In this document: positions 1 through 9,479 of the stretch, piece by piece
Layout: the number at the start of each line of letters is the position of its first letter
Numbering within the stretch: position 1 is the stretch's first letter
Assembly (NCBI GenBank): GCA_021129445.1
Contig: JAJOLG010000041.1
Span: forward strand, 1 to 13,630
Source of the DNA: Candidatus Altimarinota bacterium
GTDB lineage: Bacteria > Patescibacteriota > Gracilibacteria > GCA-2401425 > JAJOLG01
DNA length: 13,630 nucleotides
Direction: 5' to 3'
Made by a program: the position numbers and the translations under genes
The notes under the pieces: generated by a model
What the model was told of the DNA's origin: nothing
Database searches by the model: none
The model's input: the letters and a program-made list of their open reading frames with translations, nothing else

Positions 1-9
1 TTAATGGGA

Positions 10-18
10 TGTGGATAA
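10..18 (-). promoter_or_regulatory. DnaA-box consensus (TTATCCACA)
   Basis: The minus strand reads TTATCCACA, the exact 9-bp DnaA-box consensus. A second exact copy lies at 4422-4430. A GC-containing 9-mer like this is expected well under once in this much AT-rich DNA, so two copies are suggestive. Binding itself is inferred. Confidence 0.4.
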
Positions 19-160
19 GAATGTTTTTGAAGTTTAATTATTTTTTTGCACATAATGTGGGGGGTTGTACAATTTATTTTTTATTTATTAAAAATCTAGC
101 GATTTTTAATTAAAATTTAATTTAATTATTTTTGCTTTTTGTGCATAACGTGGTTTTAAT

Positions 161-1605: not shown

Positions 1606-1800
1606 AATTGTAAAAAAATCTTTTCACTTAAAAACTCTCGTTTATCTTCAAACAATTTGTTTATATTCAACAATACTTCAAATATTTCTATCAAGAATAA
1701 TATTTCTCACATTTAATGTATCAACTCAAGTTGTAAGTATTTTAGAACTTGTTAAAATTACAGGAATATCTTTATCATTATCTTGGAATTTTTCTAAAAA
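1588..1800 (-). pseudogene. Remnant of type I restriction enzyme R subunit (HsdR) helicase domain
   Basis: A frame different from that of the overlapping dipeptidase end encodes DIPVILTSSKILTTGVD, then NIILDRNIGSIVEYKQIVGR. These match helicase motifs V and VI of HsdR-type superfamily 2 translocases (family pattern: LLTTGVD, a short spacer, efkQiiGRGTR). Where GRGTR is expected, the glycine codon is TAA (1642-1644). After this stop the same frame continues with family-like TRVFKGKDFFTIYILK. So this is a roughly 70-residue fragment of a protein normally around 800-1000 residues, without Walker A, DEAD box or nuclease. It is squeezed between the dipeptidase gene and the 40-bp array. A TGA-to-TAA or GGA-to-TAA change would explain the nonsense codon. 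A related DEAD-box helicase is the alternative source. Confidence 0.72.
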
Positions 1801-2576
1801 TCCACAGGCCCATACAAATACTCATTTTTTCAATAAAACTTCGCCCAATACGAATCTCAATATGCAAAATGCCACCACTCCGACGGTAAATTTGAAAACC
1901 CAAAACTCAACATTGTATCTGTTAAAAATTCGCGATTTTTCCTTTGTTTATCAGTAATTTTTGAAGTAAATAAACAGGAAATTTCTCACGGATAATTTAT
2001 CGGCGAACCCATATCAACATATCTTCAATCCGCATGAAATAAGTCTAAATCCACTGCTCATCAAGTTGTATGCGGTGAAATATATCTATTTGGATCGGAA
2101 ATAAACTCAATTGTTTTTTCATAAATCTGATCTTCCGGCAAATCAGAATTTTTAGATTTCATAAATTCAAAAATTTTTTCAAATAATTTTTTCTGAACTT
2201 CAAGCGGTCTGTATCAAATTTTTAGAACCAAATAAAATCATTTTGATTTAAAAAATTTATCAATTTCCAAAATTTTTTCTGCAACACTTTTTCTCAAAAA
2301 AATTCAAAAATCAGGATTTTTTTCCAAATACTTTTGCATTTCAACATTTTCCAAATTTATAATTTCATCAATATCTTTATTTCAAGTAAAAATAATTTCA
2401 TCATGCCAAAATTCCTGAATTGCAATTTCTGATTTTGTCACTTTCACCATTTCCTCATTTTTCGTTTTTTCAGAAACTTTTAAATCCGTGTAAATATCAT
2501 TATGAATGTAAAAAAATTTTTTTACATCAAGTGGAATGTTTGCAAAATCAACATCAAAATTTATAATATTTTTCAT
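1794..2576 (-). CDS. VanX/DdpX-type D-alanyl-D-alanine dipeptidase (peptidase M15)
   Basis: This is a 260-aa zinc dipeptidase expected to cleave D-Ala-D-Ala, a peptidoglycan precursor or turnover product. The signature is clear: GYRP at 121-124 (substrate-binding Arg), SPHTTGGAVD at 167-176 (zinc ligands H169 and D176), and EWWH at 233-236 (catalytic Glu233, zinc ligand His236). Several glycines, including both in TTGG, are encoded by TGA. I see no signal peptide, so it is probably cytoplasmic. VanX and DdpX are about 190-205 aa, so the N-terminal 60-70 residues are an extension. It starts 3 nt after the 548-aa gene and is probably co-transcribed. In the absence of vanH/vanA-like genes, resistance is less likely than recycling or use of cell-wall dipeptide from itself or a host. 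It ends in TAG, while most genes here end in TAA. Confidence 0.9.
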
Positions 2577-2579
2577 AAA

Positions 2580-4226
2580 TTATTTTAAAATTTTTTCTAA
2601 CTTAAATGAATAAAAAAGTAAATTCAAAAAATTTTCTAAATTTTTCTCATCTGCAAATTTTTTTTTCATATCAAAAAATTTTTTATCAATTCAATCAGAA
2701 ATTCTTATTCAATCAATTTTATTCAATCTTTCTTCAATATTTTGAAAAATATTATCAAAAGAATTTACAAATTTTTCTTCATTAAATTCTGGGATTTTTA
2801 AATTATTTTGCAAAAAATTTGCAGTCTGATCTTTTGCAAAATCTCATCAAATTATCTGCATTTTAAACATATCATCAGGGATTGACCCAGACGACCCAGC
2901 CAAATTTTTTCAATCATTATCTCAATTTTCATCAAAAGTATCAAAAATTCACAATCACAAAATTACATTTTTAACATAATTTTGTACAGCCTCTGTATTT
3001 TTTCATTTTTTTTCAAAAAATTTTTCAACAGACTCTGCCGCTAATTCACGATATCATCTTTCTGATCAAATATGCAAACTTCATCAAATTCACATCAAAA
3101 AAATTGACATATTTCAAGACAAATTGTAATTCTCACAATTTCAAGATAACAAAGAAAATCATTCGTTTTTCTCAATTTTTTCAGGATTTTTCATTTTTCA
3201 TTTATAAAAAACAATTTCTCAATTTTCTTTGTAAACAAACAAATCTTTTTTTATTCAATTTTCTTGAAAATCCATTATTTTTACAGGTCTTCATCACGAT
3301 TTTTCCAAATTTTTTTCAAAAAATTCTTCAAAAAAACCTTCTCATAAATTTTCATCTTCTAAAATTTTTTTCACAGATTCAGAAAATTTTTTTATAGTTT
3401 CTAAATTTTTATATGAATTTTGAAAATTTATTTTTCAATTATTTAAAATTTTTTTCTCTTCCAAAATATCTTTTTTCTCTCAAAAATTTTTTGAAATAAA
3501 AATACTCAAAACTGAATTTTGAAATTCTCAAAACATTTCAGGCTCAGAAAATCAATTTAAATATTTTTTCTGCATTAAATTTCTTTGAAAATTCTTTTTA
3601 ATTTCAATTGAATTTGATAAAATTTTCTCCCTGAACAAAAAAGAAATTATTTTATTTTCTAAATTTCTCTCCTGCTCTGGAAAATTTTTTATTTGCTCAG
3701 AAAATTTTTCATAAACTCATAATTCCTGTAAAATATTTTTAAAAAACTCCAAAATTTTTTGATTAAAAACATTTTTTTCAAGAGCGGAAACATATAAAAA
3801 TTCATCAAAAATTTCATTTGCAAGTTTTATTTTTTCTTTTACAGAAAAATTTTTTACAGAATTTCATTTTTCCAAAATTAAAAAAAATAAATTTTTTCAT
3901 CAATTTTTTTTTGATAATTTAACATTTGGAAAACCTTTTATTCATCATCAATTCATAATATCCAAATAATCAATTGTGATATTTGAATCTATTCAATCTG
4001 CAATTTCAGCCTGATTTACAAGCGAACTCACACGATATGATCAAATTCAAAATTCGTCAGGATGAAAACAAGAATTTATAAATTCTCATCACAAAATTTC
4101 ATTAACTTGATTTAATCAATCAAGTTGTAGTTCTTGAATTCCTTTTTTAATTCAAGGATTAACATCTTCTCAAAAATTTTCCTTTAATTTTTTAACAATA
4201 TTTTCATTATTTTCCAAAATTTTCAT
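2580..4226 (-). CDS. Hypothetical protein, 548 aa, first gene of a unit with the dipeptidase
   Basis: I do not recognise a family. Read with TGA as glycine, the frame is open for 549 codons. The product is Lys/Glu/Asn/Phe-rich with no signal peptide or convincing membrane segment. The N-terminal 100 residues contain HPDEFGIGSYRVSSLV and a Gly-rich turn (MNGGGIKGFP). The middle is long, charged and helical-looking. The C-terminal third holds a better-conserved-looking block (IFLMGIGGSLHIGSERG, then YRELAAESVEKFF) and ends with another helical stretch. Around 3245-3304 a different frame, bounded by an A6 and an A7 run, gives a more natural sequence (GGRPVKIMDFQENG with TGA glycines) than the continuous frame does. 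That hints at two compensating homopolymer indels. The start at 4226 is the first ATG that gives this frame. Tight coupling to the dipeptidase suggests a shared envelope-related role, but this is inference only. Confidence 0.75.
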
Positions 4227-4245: not shown

Positions 4246-4330
4246 AAAAATAAAAAACTCCGCATTGCAGAGTTAATTTTAACTTTTTTTATTTTTTTAC
4301 AAAAAAATTAACCCTGCTTTTTCGGAGTTT
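4246..4330 (-). terminator. Leader hairpin with U-tract, attenuator-like
   Basis: On the minus strand an outer 8-bp stem (AAACTCCG with CGGAGTTT, 4323-4330 and 4255-4262) encloses short internal loops and a 14-bp inner stem (GCAGGGTTAATTTT with AAAATTAACTCTGC, 4304-4317 and 4267-4280). The one non-Watson-Crick pair is G-U in minus-strand RNA but A-C in plus-strand RNA, favouring function on the minus transcript. The 3' arm runs into TTTTTTATTTTT, as in intrinsic terminators. It ends about 20 nt before the start codon at 4226, so it sits in the leader of the 548-aa gene and could attenuate it. Confidence 0.6.
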
Positions 4331-4421
4331 GTAAATGCATCAGCCAAATATTTTTTATAAAATTTTTCATTGAGTAATTTTTAAAGATTTTTTTAAAAAT
4401 GTCAAAATAAAAAAAACTATT

Positions 4422-4441
4422 TTATCCACATTTTTTCCACA
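4422..4441 (+). promoter_or_regulatory. Two adjacent DnaA-box-like sites
   Basis: TTATCCACA (4422-4430), an exact consensus, is followed after 2 bp by TTTTCCACA (4433-4441), one mismatch away. The start-to-start distance is 11 bp, about one helical turn, which would place both on the same DNA face. They lie in the divergent region between the 548-aa gene and ftsA. They could be part of a replication origin or a DnaA control point for ftsA. Confidence 0.5.
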
Positions 4442-4578: not shown

Positions 4579-4587
4579 TGTGGAAAA
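4579..4587 (-). promoter_or_regulatory. DnaA-box-like site near the ftsA promoter
   Basis: The minus strand reads TTTTCCACA, one mismatch from the DnaA consensus and identical to the site at 4433-4441 but inverted. It lies just downstream of the candidate ftsA promoter, where binding could influence ftsA transcription. Confidence 0.3.
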
Positions 4588-4675: not shown

Positions 4676-5914
4676 ATGTCAAAAGACCACATAATCGCAG
4701 GGATAGATATTTGAAGCTATAAAATCAGAACAATTATTTGAGTAATTGATGAAGGTAGACCAACTCCACACATTATTTGAACAGGTGTTGTTTTTTCAAA
4801 TTGAATCAGAAAATGAAAAATTGTTGACTTAAAGGAGCTTGTAGATAACATAAATGCTTCACTTGAAGAAGCAGAAACCGTTTCTTGAATACCGGTTCAA
4901 CAAGCATTTATTTCAATTTCAAATAGTCAAATTGCAAGTTTTGAATCAAAATGAGTAATTGCAATTTCCTGAAATGAAATTACAGAAGAAGACCTTCAAA
5001 GGGCTTTGGAATCTGCAAAAAATACAACTCCAATTGAACCATGAATCGAAGTTATTGATGTAATTGCAAAAAATTATTTTATAGATAATTGATCAGCAAT
5101 TACAAACCCGGTTTGACTTTCTTGAACTAGACTTGAAGCATTTGCTGAAATTATTACTTGAACTGAATCTGCACTTCAAAATATCAAAAAATCAATAAAT
5201 CAAGTTTGAGTTGAAATTGTAAAAATGGTTCCAGCAACAATCGCAAGCAATACTGCGGTTTTGACAAAAAAACAAAAAGAAATTTGAGTTGTAAATATTG
5301 ATATTTGATCATCTTCAACTTGAATTTCTGTTTATGAAGAATGAGTTTTGCTTTATTCTTGATGAATTCCAGTTTGATGAGAAAATGTGACAAACGATAT
5401 TGCAATTTGAACAAGATCTTCAATTGAAACTGCTGAGAAGCTAAAAATTGAATTTTGAGATTTAATTTCAACAAATCTAAGAGAAGAAATTGATTTAGCA
5501 CAACTTTCTGAGGTTGACAGCTGAAAAATTTCAAAAAAACATTTAAATGAAATAATCAGGGCAAGATACGAAGAAATTTTTACAATGGTAAATCATGAGT
5601 TAAAAACAATCTGAAAAGATTGAATGTTACCTTGATGAATTGTAATTACTTGATGATGAGCAAAAATTGAATGACTTGAAGAAATTTGTAAAAATATCAT
5701 GAATTTACCAGCACAAATTTGATTTCCATGCGAAATTACAACTGTTGTTGATAAAATAAATGACCCAGAATATGCAACTGCTGTTTGATTGATAAAATAT
5801 TGATCAGAATTTTGAGAATGATGATGAGGATTTGATTTTTGAAATGTTTTATGATGATTTTCAGGATTTTGAGAATGAATTTGAAAATGGTTGAAATCTT
5901 TGTTGCCGAGTTAA
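4676..5914 (+). CDS. ftsA: Cell division protein FtsA
   Basis: This is a 412-aa actin-like ATPase that tethers FtsZ to the membrane and recruits the divisome. The N-terminal phosphate-1 motif is GIDIGSYKIRT (9-19). The 1C-region motif NPVGLSGTRLEA (144-155) matches the NPIGLSGVRLE pattern of FtsA. The phosphate-2 motif is NIDIGSSSTGISVYEEG (207-223), and the adenosine-binding motif is GIVITGGGAKIEGL (321-334). After a Gly-rich linker (about 379-399) it ends with a short amphipathic helix GIGKWLKSLLPS, the expected membrane-targeting sequence. Length is normal for the family. Nearly all glycines are TGA; the GGG at residue 9 is one exception. The ATG at 4676 puts the first ATPase motif at the usual distance; no Shine-Dalgarno precedes it. 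ftsZ follows after 159 nt. Confidence 0.97.
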
Positions 5915-6073: not shown

Positions 6074-7213
6074 ATGGCTGATCTACTAAAAGAAATGATG
6101 AATAAAAAATCATGAGCAAAAACAACAAATTGACCAACACAAGTTACACCATGAATAGCTCCAAATGCAAACATTAAGGTTGTTTGAGTTTGATGAGCTT
6201 GATGAAATGCATTAAATAGAATGGTTGTTGCATGAGTTGATTGAGTGCAATTTATTGCGATGAATACTGATGCACAAGCACTTACTTCTTCACAAGCTGA
6301 GAAAAAAATTGCAATCTGAAAAGCTGCAACAAGATGACTTTGAGCTTGATGAAATCCAGAAGCATGAAAAACTGCTGCTGAGGAATCAAGAGAAGAAATT
6401 AAAAGTGCACTTGATTGAGCAGATATGATTTTTATTACTTGTGGTTTGTGATGATGAACTTGAACATGAGCTGCACCAGTAGTTGCAGAAATCGCAAAAG
6501 AAATGTGAATTTTAACAATTTGAGTTGTGACAAAACCATTTTCTTTCGAAGGTCAAAAAAGATGAAAACAAGCTGCTACATGATACGATGAGCTAAAATG
6601 AAATGTTGATACACTTATCACAGTTCCAAATGACAGAATTTTATCAATTATTGATAAACAAACACCACTTACAGAAGCTTTTATGGTAATTGATGATGTT
6701 TTAAGACAAGGTATCGCATGAGTTTCCGAGGTTATTACTTGAAACTGATTGATAAATGTGGATTTCGCAGATGTTAAATCTGTAATGCAAAATGCAGGTT
6801 CTGCTTTGATGTGAATTTGATACTGATCTTGAGAAAATAGAGCTGCCGATGCTGCAAGATGAGCAATCGATTCTCCTCTTTTAGAACTTTCAATTAATTG
6901 AGCAAAATGAGTTTTAATAAATGTGACTTGATGATCTGACCTTTCAATGTTTGAAGTTGATGAAGCTGCAAAAATCATCACAGAAGCCGTTGATCCAGAA
7001 GCAAATATTATTTTCTGAGCGGTTATTGATGAAAAATATTCTTGAGAATTAAAAGTTACAGTTGTTGCAACTTGATTCTCAGAAGAAACACAAAATATTG
7101 CAAAGCCAAAAGTTACTCCTGCAATGAAAAGAATGTGAATTTGAAGAAGAACTCCTCAAAATCAGCAAGACGATTTAGATGTTCCTGCTTTTATCAGGAA
7201 GGCAATTAAATAA
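6074..7213 (+). CDS. ftsZ: Cell division protein FtsZ
   Basis: This is a 379-aa tubulin-like GTPase that polymerises into the division ring. The N-terminal nucleotide-binding segment is KVVGVGGAGGNALNRM (35-50). The tubulin signature GGGTGTG is at 126-132, followed by AAPVVAEIA. The T7 synergy loop NVDFAD (228-233) supplies the catalytic Asp residues for the neighbouring subunit. After a short linker comes the conserved C-terminal peptide [13 protein letters not shown] (367-379), which binds FtsA. About 44 of 48 glycines are TGA and four are GGT; all five glycines of the signature motif are TGA. Length and domain order are normal apart from a short C-terminal linker. The ATG at 6074 is preceded by A/T-rich sequence without a Shine-Dalgarno. 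An intrinsic terminator follows 20 nt after the stop. Confidence 0.98.
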
Positions 7214-7317: not shown

Positions 7318-7959
7318 ATGAATATTTTTCTTCAAATCAACCACGCAATATCAGAATTTTTAATCTGATTAGTTTTAACAAATAATGCACAAAATTTTGT
7401 AAAATTTTTTGCAGATTCGCCCATTTTTTTCCTACCATTTTTTTTTGTATTCTACTGGATTTATTACGAAAAATTTTATAAAACAGACAAAAAATTTTCT
7501 CAAAAAATAAAAAATTTTTTCTCCAAAAATGAAAAAATTTCAATCAAAGAAAAAAAAAATTGACTGCTTTTGATGGTTTATTCAATAATCTTTTGAGTTT
7601 CAATAAATTTAACAATCCAACTATTTTTCTTTTTCGATAGACCTGAACTTTTAATTACACCAATTTTACAACACATCCCAGATGCTTCATTTCCATCTGA
7701 CCACTCTACAGTATCATTTGCATTTTTATTCTGATTATTTTTCGCAGGATACAAAAAAATATTTTGGACATTTTTACCATTCGTTATCCTGATGAACACA
7801 GCAAGAATTGCCGGATGAGTGCACTGGTTTTTTGATATTTTAGCTTGAATAATTATTTGATTTTTTGTAGTTTTAACAATTTTTAAAAATAAAAATTCAA
7901 AAATTATTGCAAAATTAAATGATTTTTTTATAAATTTAGCAAAATTTTTTAAGCTTTAA
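7318..7959 (+). CDS. PAP2-family lipid phosphatase, BcrC-like (probable undecaprenyl-diphosphatase)
   Basis: This is a 213-aa polytopic membrane phosphatase, probably dephosphorylating undecaprenyl diphosphate to recycle the lipid carrier of wall and surface-glycan synthesis. The three PAP2 motifs are present: DRPEL (107-111; the distal Lys of KX6RP is Gln here), SFPSDHS (124-130, with the PSDH form seen in BcrC proteins), and RIAGGVHWFFDILAG (163-177), with the catalytic His in GVH and the Asp after it. Hydrophobic segments lie near 35-50, 81-106, 132-145, 148-160 and 174-187, with a basic loop at about 51-80. It lies 105 nt after ftsZ, behind a terminator, and leads a tight three-gene unit. 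PgpB-like phosphatidylglycerophosphatase activity is the alternative. Confidence 0.9.
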
Positions 7960-7962
7960 ATT

Positions 7963-8145
7963 ATGAAAAATACACTTTTTTGAATCGGTATTTTTATTAT
8001 CTGACTTGTAATCTGATTTTTTCTAGGAGTTGCAAAAAATTTCCAAATCAATGTTTGACTTGATAAAACACTTTGAAATTGAGTAAATTCAGTATTTGAA
8101 AACTATTTTAATGCACCACAAGAAATTTTTAATTTATTTAAATAA
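7963..8145 (+). CDS. Small membrane protein, 60 aa, unknown function
   Basis: I do not recognise a family. One N-terminal transmembrane helix (about residues 4-25, GIGIFIIGLVIGFFLGVA) has a small-residue pattern suited to helix packing. It is followed by a short soluble tail rich in Asn and Phe. Five of its glycines are TGA, so it would be missed under the standard code. It starts 3 nt after the phosphatase stop, and its TAA overlaps the next gene's ATG (TAATG), which implies co-transcription and perhaps translational coupling. A helper of the phosphatase or of the glycan polymerase/ligase is possible but inferred from position only. Confidence 0.7.
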
Positions 8146-9479
8146 TGCTTGAAAAAATTTTAAAAATCTCGATTTTTTCCTTTTTATTCACTGCAAGTTT
8201 TCAGTGAATAAATTTTTTTATTTGAACAGAAAATTCATTTTTTTCATGAAATTTTTCAAAATTTTCTTCAATAGTTTTCACACTTTCTGATATTTTTTTA
8301 TTTTTGAGTATTTTTTTATTTTTATTGATAATTTACAAGAAAAATTACATAAAAAAGAAAAAATTTTTTAATTTTTGAGAAAATTTTTTAGAAAATTTCT
8401 GAAACAAAAAACTAAATTTTTTATTCTTTTGACTTGTATTTTCCGCATTTTTAACATCATTTTTCATCCAAAATTTTGAAAATTTCCTTATTCATATTTC
8501 GATTTTATTAAAATTTTTTTGAGCCTGATTTTTAATTTTTTACATTCCAGAAAAAATTTTTTCTAAAAAAGAAATTTTGAACACACTTATTTTCTCCTTC
8601 TCAATCCAAAGTTTTATCGCATTTTATCAAGTTATTTTTCAAGCACCGGTTTGATTATTTTTCCTTTGAGAAAATAATTTTTGAGAAAATTTAAACGGAG
8701 TTGCAAAAATATGAGATTTTATTCGCTGATACTGAGCACTTTCTCATCCAAATATTTTATGATTATCTTCGCTAATTCTATACTTTTTAGCAAGAAAATC
8801 ATCTTTAAATTTTTTAAAAAATTTGATGATAATCTGAATTTTTTTCTCATTTTCCAAAACTGCAATAATTTGATTTTTCATCTTAAAATTTTACGAAAAA
8901 ATTTTTTTACACGAGGAAAAAAAATTTTTTGATTTAACAAATTTTTTCAATCCACAAAAAAAATTTTTTTACAATAAAATAAAAATTTTTTATACAATTT
9001 TTTATTCATCAATATTTTTCTCAATTTTTTTCTTCGTTTGAGATAAAATTTTAATGAGATTTCAAAATTTTTTTGGAATAGGTTTTCAAGAAAGAATTTT
9101 ACAATTTGAAATCGCTGAAAAAATTTTTGTAAAAAACTTGGAAAATTTTAATTTATTTTGAATTGGATTTTGAAATTTTACTCTACAAATGCAAAATTTT
9201 ACAGATAAAATTTTAAAACCTTGGGAATTTCAGCCAGTTCACAATTTTTTCATTTTATTTTGAACAGAAGTTGGAATTTTCGGATTAACAATTTTACTTT
9301 TTTTAATGTCATTTTTGTTTTTTAAATCAACAAAAAAACCTTCTGAAAAGATTTTTTTGCTTTTACTTTTATTTTTTTGAAGTTTTTTTGACCATTTTTT
9401 ATTAAGTTCTACAATTGGAATTATTTTATTTTGGACAATTTTAAAAAATTTTAATTTTTTTGCAAAAATTCCTTCATAA
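8145..9479 (+). CDS. O-antigen ligase/polymerase-like membrane protein (Wzy_C/WaaL superfamily)
   Basis: This is a 444-aa polytopic membrane protein, almost wholly hydrophobic and very Phe-rich, with roughly ten or more membrane segments. Two hallmarks of the Wzy/WaaL superfamily are visible: GYGALSHPNILG (195-206), and in the second half GIGFGNF (about 341-347) followed by QPVHNFFILFGTEVGIFGL (363-381). The latter corresponds to the family's conserved large periplasmic loop, with the VHN histidine, and the next helix. Such proteins polymerise or ligate lipid-linked glycans on the outer membrane face. This fits the upstream lipid-carrier phosphatase. The start codon overlaps the previous stop (TAATG). 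The 3' end overlaps the convergent helicase gene by 29 nt. The precise role (polymerase, ligase or protein O-glycosylation) cannot be told from sequence alone. Confidence 0.88.

What the first reader, a model, noticed from the sequence alone, without database searches (positions are those of the whole stretch)
4246..4330. Long leader hairpin with U-tract before the 548-aa/VanX unit
A 22-bp interrupted stem, whose single non-canonical pair is G-U only in minus-strand RNA, ends in a U-rich tract about 20 nt before the start codon. No upstream minus-strand gene needs terminating here, because ftsA diverges. This suggests premature termination as regulation, perhaps by a ligand, protein or RNA.
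Basis: partly seen in the sequence, partly recalled or inferred. Interest (0 to 1): 0.6.

Follow-up and report, generated by a model that had tools for sequence, protein, structure and literature searches.

The report
Likely attenuator hairpin before orphan gene
A recoded Gracilibacteria-type bacterium has, just before an orphan gene linked to a cell-wall peptidase gene, an RNA hairpin with a U-tract that is built like a transcription stop signal and has a competing partner upstream, so it is probably a transcription attenuator, a known kind of switch whose signal and conservation could not be established here.

Summary
On the minus strand, 4330-4255 folds into a stem of 8 + 14 pairs with one G-U pair, followed by a U-tract (4257-4246), 19 nt before the start codon at 4226. 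It is the strongest non-tRNA hairpin with a U-tract in 374 kb of this genome. Of 36 strict terminators in the sample, 30 follow a same-strand gene. Only two sit in a divergent leader, and only this one has a strong upstream alternative partner (z -5.4, next -2.0). Premature termination (attenuation) of the 548-aa/VanX-like unit is therefore the best explanation. The long stem itself also ends on the U-tract, so the default would be OFF, and readthrough needs something to block the outermost 5' segment. A 20-codon ORF ending in the 5' arm could place a ribosome there, but such an ORF is expected by chance. Conservation was untestable: the 548-aa protein has no relative in 353 class or 379 phylum genomes. 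A start site downstream of the hairpin is not excluded. Verdict: a well-formed candidate attenuator, new member of a known kind, signal unknown.

The parts
4255..4330 (-). Long interrupted leader hairpin (8 + 14 pairs, 5x4 interior loop)
   Evidence: -25.5 kcal/mol for the hairpin alone; z -5.6 for the leader
4323..4330 (-). Segment 1, AAACUCCG; pairs with segment 4 in the long stem, weakly with segment 2
   Evidence: 5' arm alone -2.6 kcal/mol
4310..4317 (-). Segment 2, GCAGGGUU (pairing continues with AAUUUU to 4304); pairs with segment 3
   Evidence: (I13)
4267..4274 (-). Segment 3, AACUCUGC; shared by the long stem and the compact terminator
4256..4263 (-). Segment 4, GCGGAGUU; pairs with segment 3 (terminator) or segment 1 (long stem)
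4256..4274 (-). Compact intrinsic terminator hairpin 3:4, 8 bp, -8.6 kcal/mol
4246..4257 (-). U-tract UUUUUUAUUUUU
4308..4370 (-). Possible 20-codon leader ORF MKNFIKNIWLMHLQTPKKQG, stop inside the 5' arm; weak, chance not excluded
4377..4405 (-). Promoter-like TTGACA-17-AAAAAT, would start RNA near 4370; weak consensus match only
2580..4226 (-). 548-aa orphan ORF, first gene of the presumed unit
1794..2576 (-). M15 D-Ala-D-Ala dipeptidase-type (VanX-like) gene, 3 nt after the 548-aa gene

Best explanation
The hairpin is a leader terminator (transcription attenuator) acting on the minus-strand 548-aa/VanX-like unit. RNA polymerase starting upstream, perhaps at the TTGACA site with a start near 4370, makes a leader of about 145 nt. 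By default the RNA folds into the long stem (1:4 plus 2:3) or the compact 3:4 hairpin; both end on the U-tract and release the polymerase about 20 nt before the start codon. Readthrough happens when something occupies segment 1 and leaves segment 2 free, so that 2:3 forms and segment 4 stays unpaired. A ribosome on the short leader ORF is one candidate; an RNA-binding protein or a small RNA is another. Shown by computation: the stems, the competition, their rarity in this genome, and the orientation of terminators. Inferred: transcription through the leader, termination, co-transcription with the VanX-like gene, regulation, and its signal.
For: Stem beyond chance (z -5.6) and extreme in the genome. 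30 of 36 strict terminators in 374 kb follow a same-strand gene, so intrinsic termination is in use; only 2 lie in divergent leaders in the sense direction, with none expected in shuffles. Segment 3 has a strong upstream partner: -8.4 kcal/mol against -1.2 in shuffles, z -5.4, next best of 36 is -2.0. Strand asymmetry: the long stem and the compact hairpin each contain one G-U pair that exists only in minus-strand RNA, and the U-tract follows only on that strand. Position and orientation fit the published description of 5' terminators (PMC2965389).
Against: The competing long stem also ends on the U-tract, so it is not a simple antiterminator. No start site is mapped: leaders in this genome show A-rich sequence and TATAAT-like peaks within about 40 nt of the start codon, so a start downstream of the hairpin is possible (TATAAA at 4245-4240). 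No relatives, hence no covariation. The leader ORF is of a length expected by chance in this A+T-rich sequence, has no homologue in the sampled sequences and no run of one codon.
Confidence: 0.52

Rival explanations
1. An ordinary terminator for an independent short minus-strand transcript (a small RNA, or spurious divergent transcription from the ftsA promoter region), which insulates the 548-aa gene that has its own start downstream.
For: The spacer is 449 nt and A+T-rich with several weak promoter matches; terminators in this genome normally end transcripts. A TATAAA lies at 4245-4240 and genome leaders seem short.
Against: No Rfam RNA and no ORF of 60 aa or more on the minus strand in the spacer. 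It does not explain the strong alternative partner of segment 3, which no other terminator in the sample has.
Confidence: 0.22
2. A specific form of the best explanation: the attenuator is ribosome-mediated in the trp/his manner, the ribosome's position on the 20-codon ORF 4370-4308 deciding between 1:4+2:3, 2:3 and 3:4.
For: Segments 1 and 2 lie within the last codons of an ORF whose stop (4310-4308) is at the end of segment 2; four mutually pairing segments exist.
Against: A 20-codon frame is not rare here (own rough estimate 0.2 per frame) and a second frame over the same stretch is open too. No run of diagnostic codons, no amino-acid biosynthesis gene downstream; the genome shows no Shine-Dalgarno use that could mark a start.
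Confidence: 0.15
3. A relic: a terminator left by a decayed gene or mobile element and now without function or recently exapted, as described for 'mobile attenuators'.
For: Such exaptation is documented (PMC2965389); the frame ending at 4297 (...YLADAFTNSEKAGLIFL) looks less random than its surroundings.
Against: The element is unique in this genome and absent from viral contigs; translations of the spacer show no protein-like remnant upstream of that frame (only part of that tblastn output was printed).
Confidence: 0.13
4. A DNA-level element (cruciform or a part of a replication origin) next to the DnaA-box triplet at 4422, 4433 and 4587-4579.
For: The only cluster of three TTWTCCACA sites in the assembly lies 90-260 nt from the stem.
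Against: G-U pairs and U-tract favour RNA of one strand; third-position skew of the plus-strand genes at 7318-9479 is negative, so there is no lasting skew change at the spacer.
Confidence: 0.05

Closest known systems
E. coli trp-type ribosome-mediated attenuator
   Same: Four segments with 2:3 and 3:4 as alternatives, a U-tract, and a short ORF overlapping the first segments
   Different: Here 1:4 closes around 2:3 and also ends on the U-tract; no run of regulatory codons; no amino-acid biosynthesis gene; stop codon at the end of segment 2, not between 1 and 2 (trp layout partly from own knowledge)
5' terminators / premature terminators (Naville and Gautheret 2010, PMC2965389)
   Same: Intrinsic terminator in a leader, sense orientation, close to the start codon
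   Different: Gene families there were called from recurrence across species; this one has no known orthologue
Mobile attenuators (exapted terminators of insertion sequences, PMC2965389)
   Same: A terminator in front of an unrelated gene
   Different: Single copy in this genome, no transposon remnant found

Membership tests
Leader intrinsic terminator (premature terminator) | Stable hairpin directly followed by a U-tract | tested here: met
Leader intrinsic terminator (premature terminator) | Lies upstream of a gene in sense orientation with no upstream same-strand gene to end | tested here: met
Leader intrinsic terminator (premature terminator) | Lies within the transcribed leader (start site upstream) | not testable with these tools
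   only a weak promoter match; leaders appear short genome-wide
Leader intrinsic terminator (premature terminator) | Alternative structure that would allow readthrough | tested here: inconclusive
   2:3 pairing is strong but the full long stem also reaches the U-tract
Leader intrinsic terminator (premature terminator) | Recurrence or covariation in relatives | tested here: inconclusive
   no relative of the 548-aa protein found, so no alignment possible
trp/his-type ribosome-mediated attenuator | Leader ORF overlapping the first pairing segments | tested here: inconclusive
   ORF 4370-4308 present but expected by chance
trp/his-type ribosome-mediated attenuator | Run of codons for the regulating amino acid | tested here: not met
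   MKNFIKNIWLMHLQTPKKQG
Known riboswitch, T-box or leader family | Reaches the gathering score of an Rfam family | tested here: not met
   best leader match Phe_leader 21.9 bits against a cut-off of 55

The most novel reading that the evidence does not exclude
A three-state attenuator in which the position of a ribosome on a leader ORF selects between two different terminator folds and one readthrough fold, in a bacterium with TGA read as glycine and no Shine-Dalgarno use, controlling an orphan gene and a cell-wall dipeptidase.
Probability: 0.1. Interest if true: 0.55.

Novelty: new member of a known kind. Interest (0 to 1): 0.32.

Why it matters
My few literature searches found no described attenuator in Gracilibacteria-type bacteria. 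If real, it would show that these reduced, recoded, apparently Shine-Dalgarno-free genomes keep regulated intrinsic termination, and it would tie a cell-wall dipeptidase unit beside the ftsA/ftsZ cluster to a specific signal. As it stands it is a well-formed candidate of a familiar type.

Tried and rejected
Homologues of the 548-aa protein: none in genome contigs, 353 class genomes, 379 phylum genomes or viral contigs, and a single-sequence structure model of mean pLDDT 36.7 is uninformative. DNA similarity of the leader in 40 relatives: only short, mostly A/T-tract matches. Relatives' ftsA loci: the one same-order relative has a co-directional ORF just upstream of ftsA, so no leader comparison was possible there. 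Other copies of the arm in the own genome: none. Arm pattern in viral contigs: none. Rfam: nothing above gathering score; sub-threshold matches to microRNA and Phe_leader models are what any long hairpin gives. Loose DnaA-box clustering (TTWTNCACA) is about what chance gives; only the strict form is unusual.

Full report
The window is contig C17 of a 672,893-base, 77-contig genome. Reading TGA as glycine (table 25) gives intact genes: on the minus strand a Fic protein (309-1244), an M15 D-Ala-D-Ala dipeptidase-type gene (1794-2576) and a 548-aa orphan (2580-4226); on the plus strand ftsA (4676-5914) and ftsZ (6074-7213). The orphan and the dipeptidase genes are 3 nt apart and presumably co-transcribed (inference).

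Observation. The minus-strand RNA 4330-4255 forms the stem described: 14 inner pairs (4317-4304 with 4280-4267) and 8 outer pairs (4330-4323 with 4262-4255) around a 5x4 interior loop, with one G-U pair, G4313-U4271. It folds far better than shuffles (z -5.6) and better than the plus strand. A U-tract, 4257-4246, follows. No other non-tRNA hairpin with a U-tract in intergenic stretches of 374 kb of this genome is as stable. Scored as a leader, it is third of 85 by z, so strong leader structure is rare but not unique (L072 1662 is another).

A compact 8-bp terminator, AACUCUGC-AAU-GCGGAGUU at 4274-4256, ends on the same U-tract. Its 5' arm (segment 3) is also the 3' arm of the inner long stem, and its 3' arm (segment 4) is also the 3' arm of the outer stem. 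Four segments therefore compete: 1 (4330-4323), 2 (4317-4310), 3 (4274-4267), 4 (4263-4256). Energies: 1:4 plus 2:3 -25.5, 3:4 -8.6, the 5' arm alone -2.6 kcal/mol. The long stem and the compact hairpin each hold one G-U pair that only minus-strand RNA can make, which favours a role as RNA of this strand (direct reading of the sequence).

Is it unusual? With a strict definition, 36 terminators were found in the intergenic DNA of the 374-kb sample. 30 follow the end of a same-strand gene, 4 are antisense to both neighbours, and 2 are in divergent spacers in the sense direction, one of them this one; shuffles give none there. For each terminator I measured how well its 5' arm pairs with the 70 nt upstream: this one stands alone (z -5.4; the next is -2.0). 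Intrinsic termination thus appears to be used in this genome, and this terminator is the only one sampled that is built with a competing partner.

Mechanism. I favour premature termination by default with conditional readthrough. The long stem also reaches the U-tract, so 2:3 acts as an antiterminator only when segment 1 is kept out of pairing. A ribosome on the ORF 4370-4308 (MKNFIKNIWLMHLQTPKKQG) could do so, since segments 1 and 2 are its last codons, but such an ORF is likely by chance and carries no diagnostic codon run. A protein, small RNA or ligand is equally open. The genome shows no Shine-Dalgarno enrichment (9 of 246 genes against 16 in a control stretch).

Limits. No start site is mapped. 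Leaders in this genome show A-rich sequence in the last 18 nt and a modest excess of TATAAT-like sites within 40 nt of the start (part of that excess follows from the A-richness itself), so a start downstream of the hairpin, for instance from TATAAA at 4245-4240, is possible; the stem would then end another short transcript or have no RNA role. Conservation could not be examined: the 548-aa protein has no detectable relative, the dipeptidase relatives found are 40% identical or less and the same-order genome gave no match, and ftsA in that genome has a co-directional neighbour upstream.

Comparison. The best class label is a 5' or premature terminator (PMC2965389). Of the trp-type criteria (the trp description is in PMC13178558), alternative pairing and U-tract are met, the leader ORF is undecided and the codon run is not met. 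No Rfam family applies.

Verdict: a real, non-random, well-formed candidate attenuator of a known kind; unproven in function and with an unknown signal.

Noticed in passing
window 4422-4430 (+), 4433-4441 (+), 4579-4587 (-): Three strict DnaA-box-like sites (TTWTCCACA) in the ftsA upstream spacer, the only such triple in the assembly (33 sites in 673 kb); could be a DnaA-controlled ftsA promoter or an origin part, but no lasting GC-skew change is seen.
   Followed up: partly
window 1-160; G000 C53:1-77, C19:13081-13210: A repeat (96% and 78% identical copies) sits at or near the ends of three contigs and carries further DnaA-box-like motifs and GTGCATAACGTGG-type motifs; probably what broke the assembly.
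   Followed up: partly
window 4676-5914 (ftsA), against L027-L055: This genome reads TGA as glycine, yet its closest FtsA relatives (about 50% identity, including the one same-order genome) have no in-frame TGA, while other TGA-reading families of the class are more distant; a possible separate recoding event.
   Followed up: no
own genome, 246 genes: No Shine-Dalgarno core enrichment upstream of genes; instead A-rich sequence from -18 to -3.
   Followed up: partly
window 8183-8212 (+): A perfect 11-bp hairpin with a U-tract lies 38 nt after the ORF ending at 8145 and inside the first codons of the listed ORF 8145-9479, so the true start of that gene may be further downstream.
   Followed up: no
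L072 1544-1661 (G000 C36): Another divergent leader with a strong hairpin (z -5.5) and a U-tract about 32 nt before a 127-aa ORF.
   Followed up: no
window 2580-4226 (-): 548-aa protein without Pfam or NCBIfam match and without a detectable relative in 353 class and 379 phylum genomes.
   Followed up: yes
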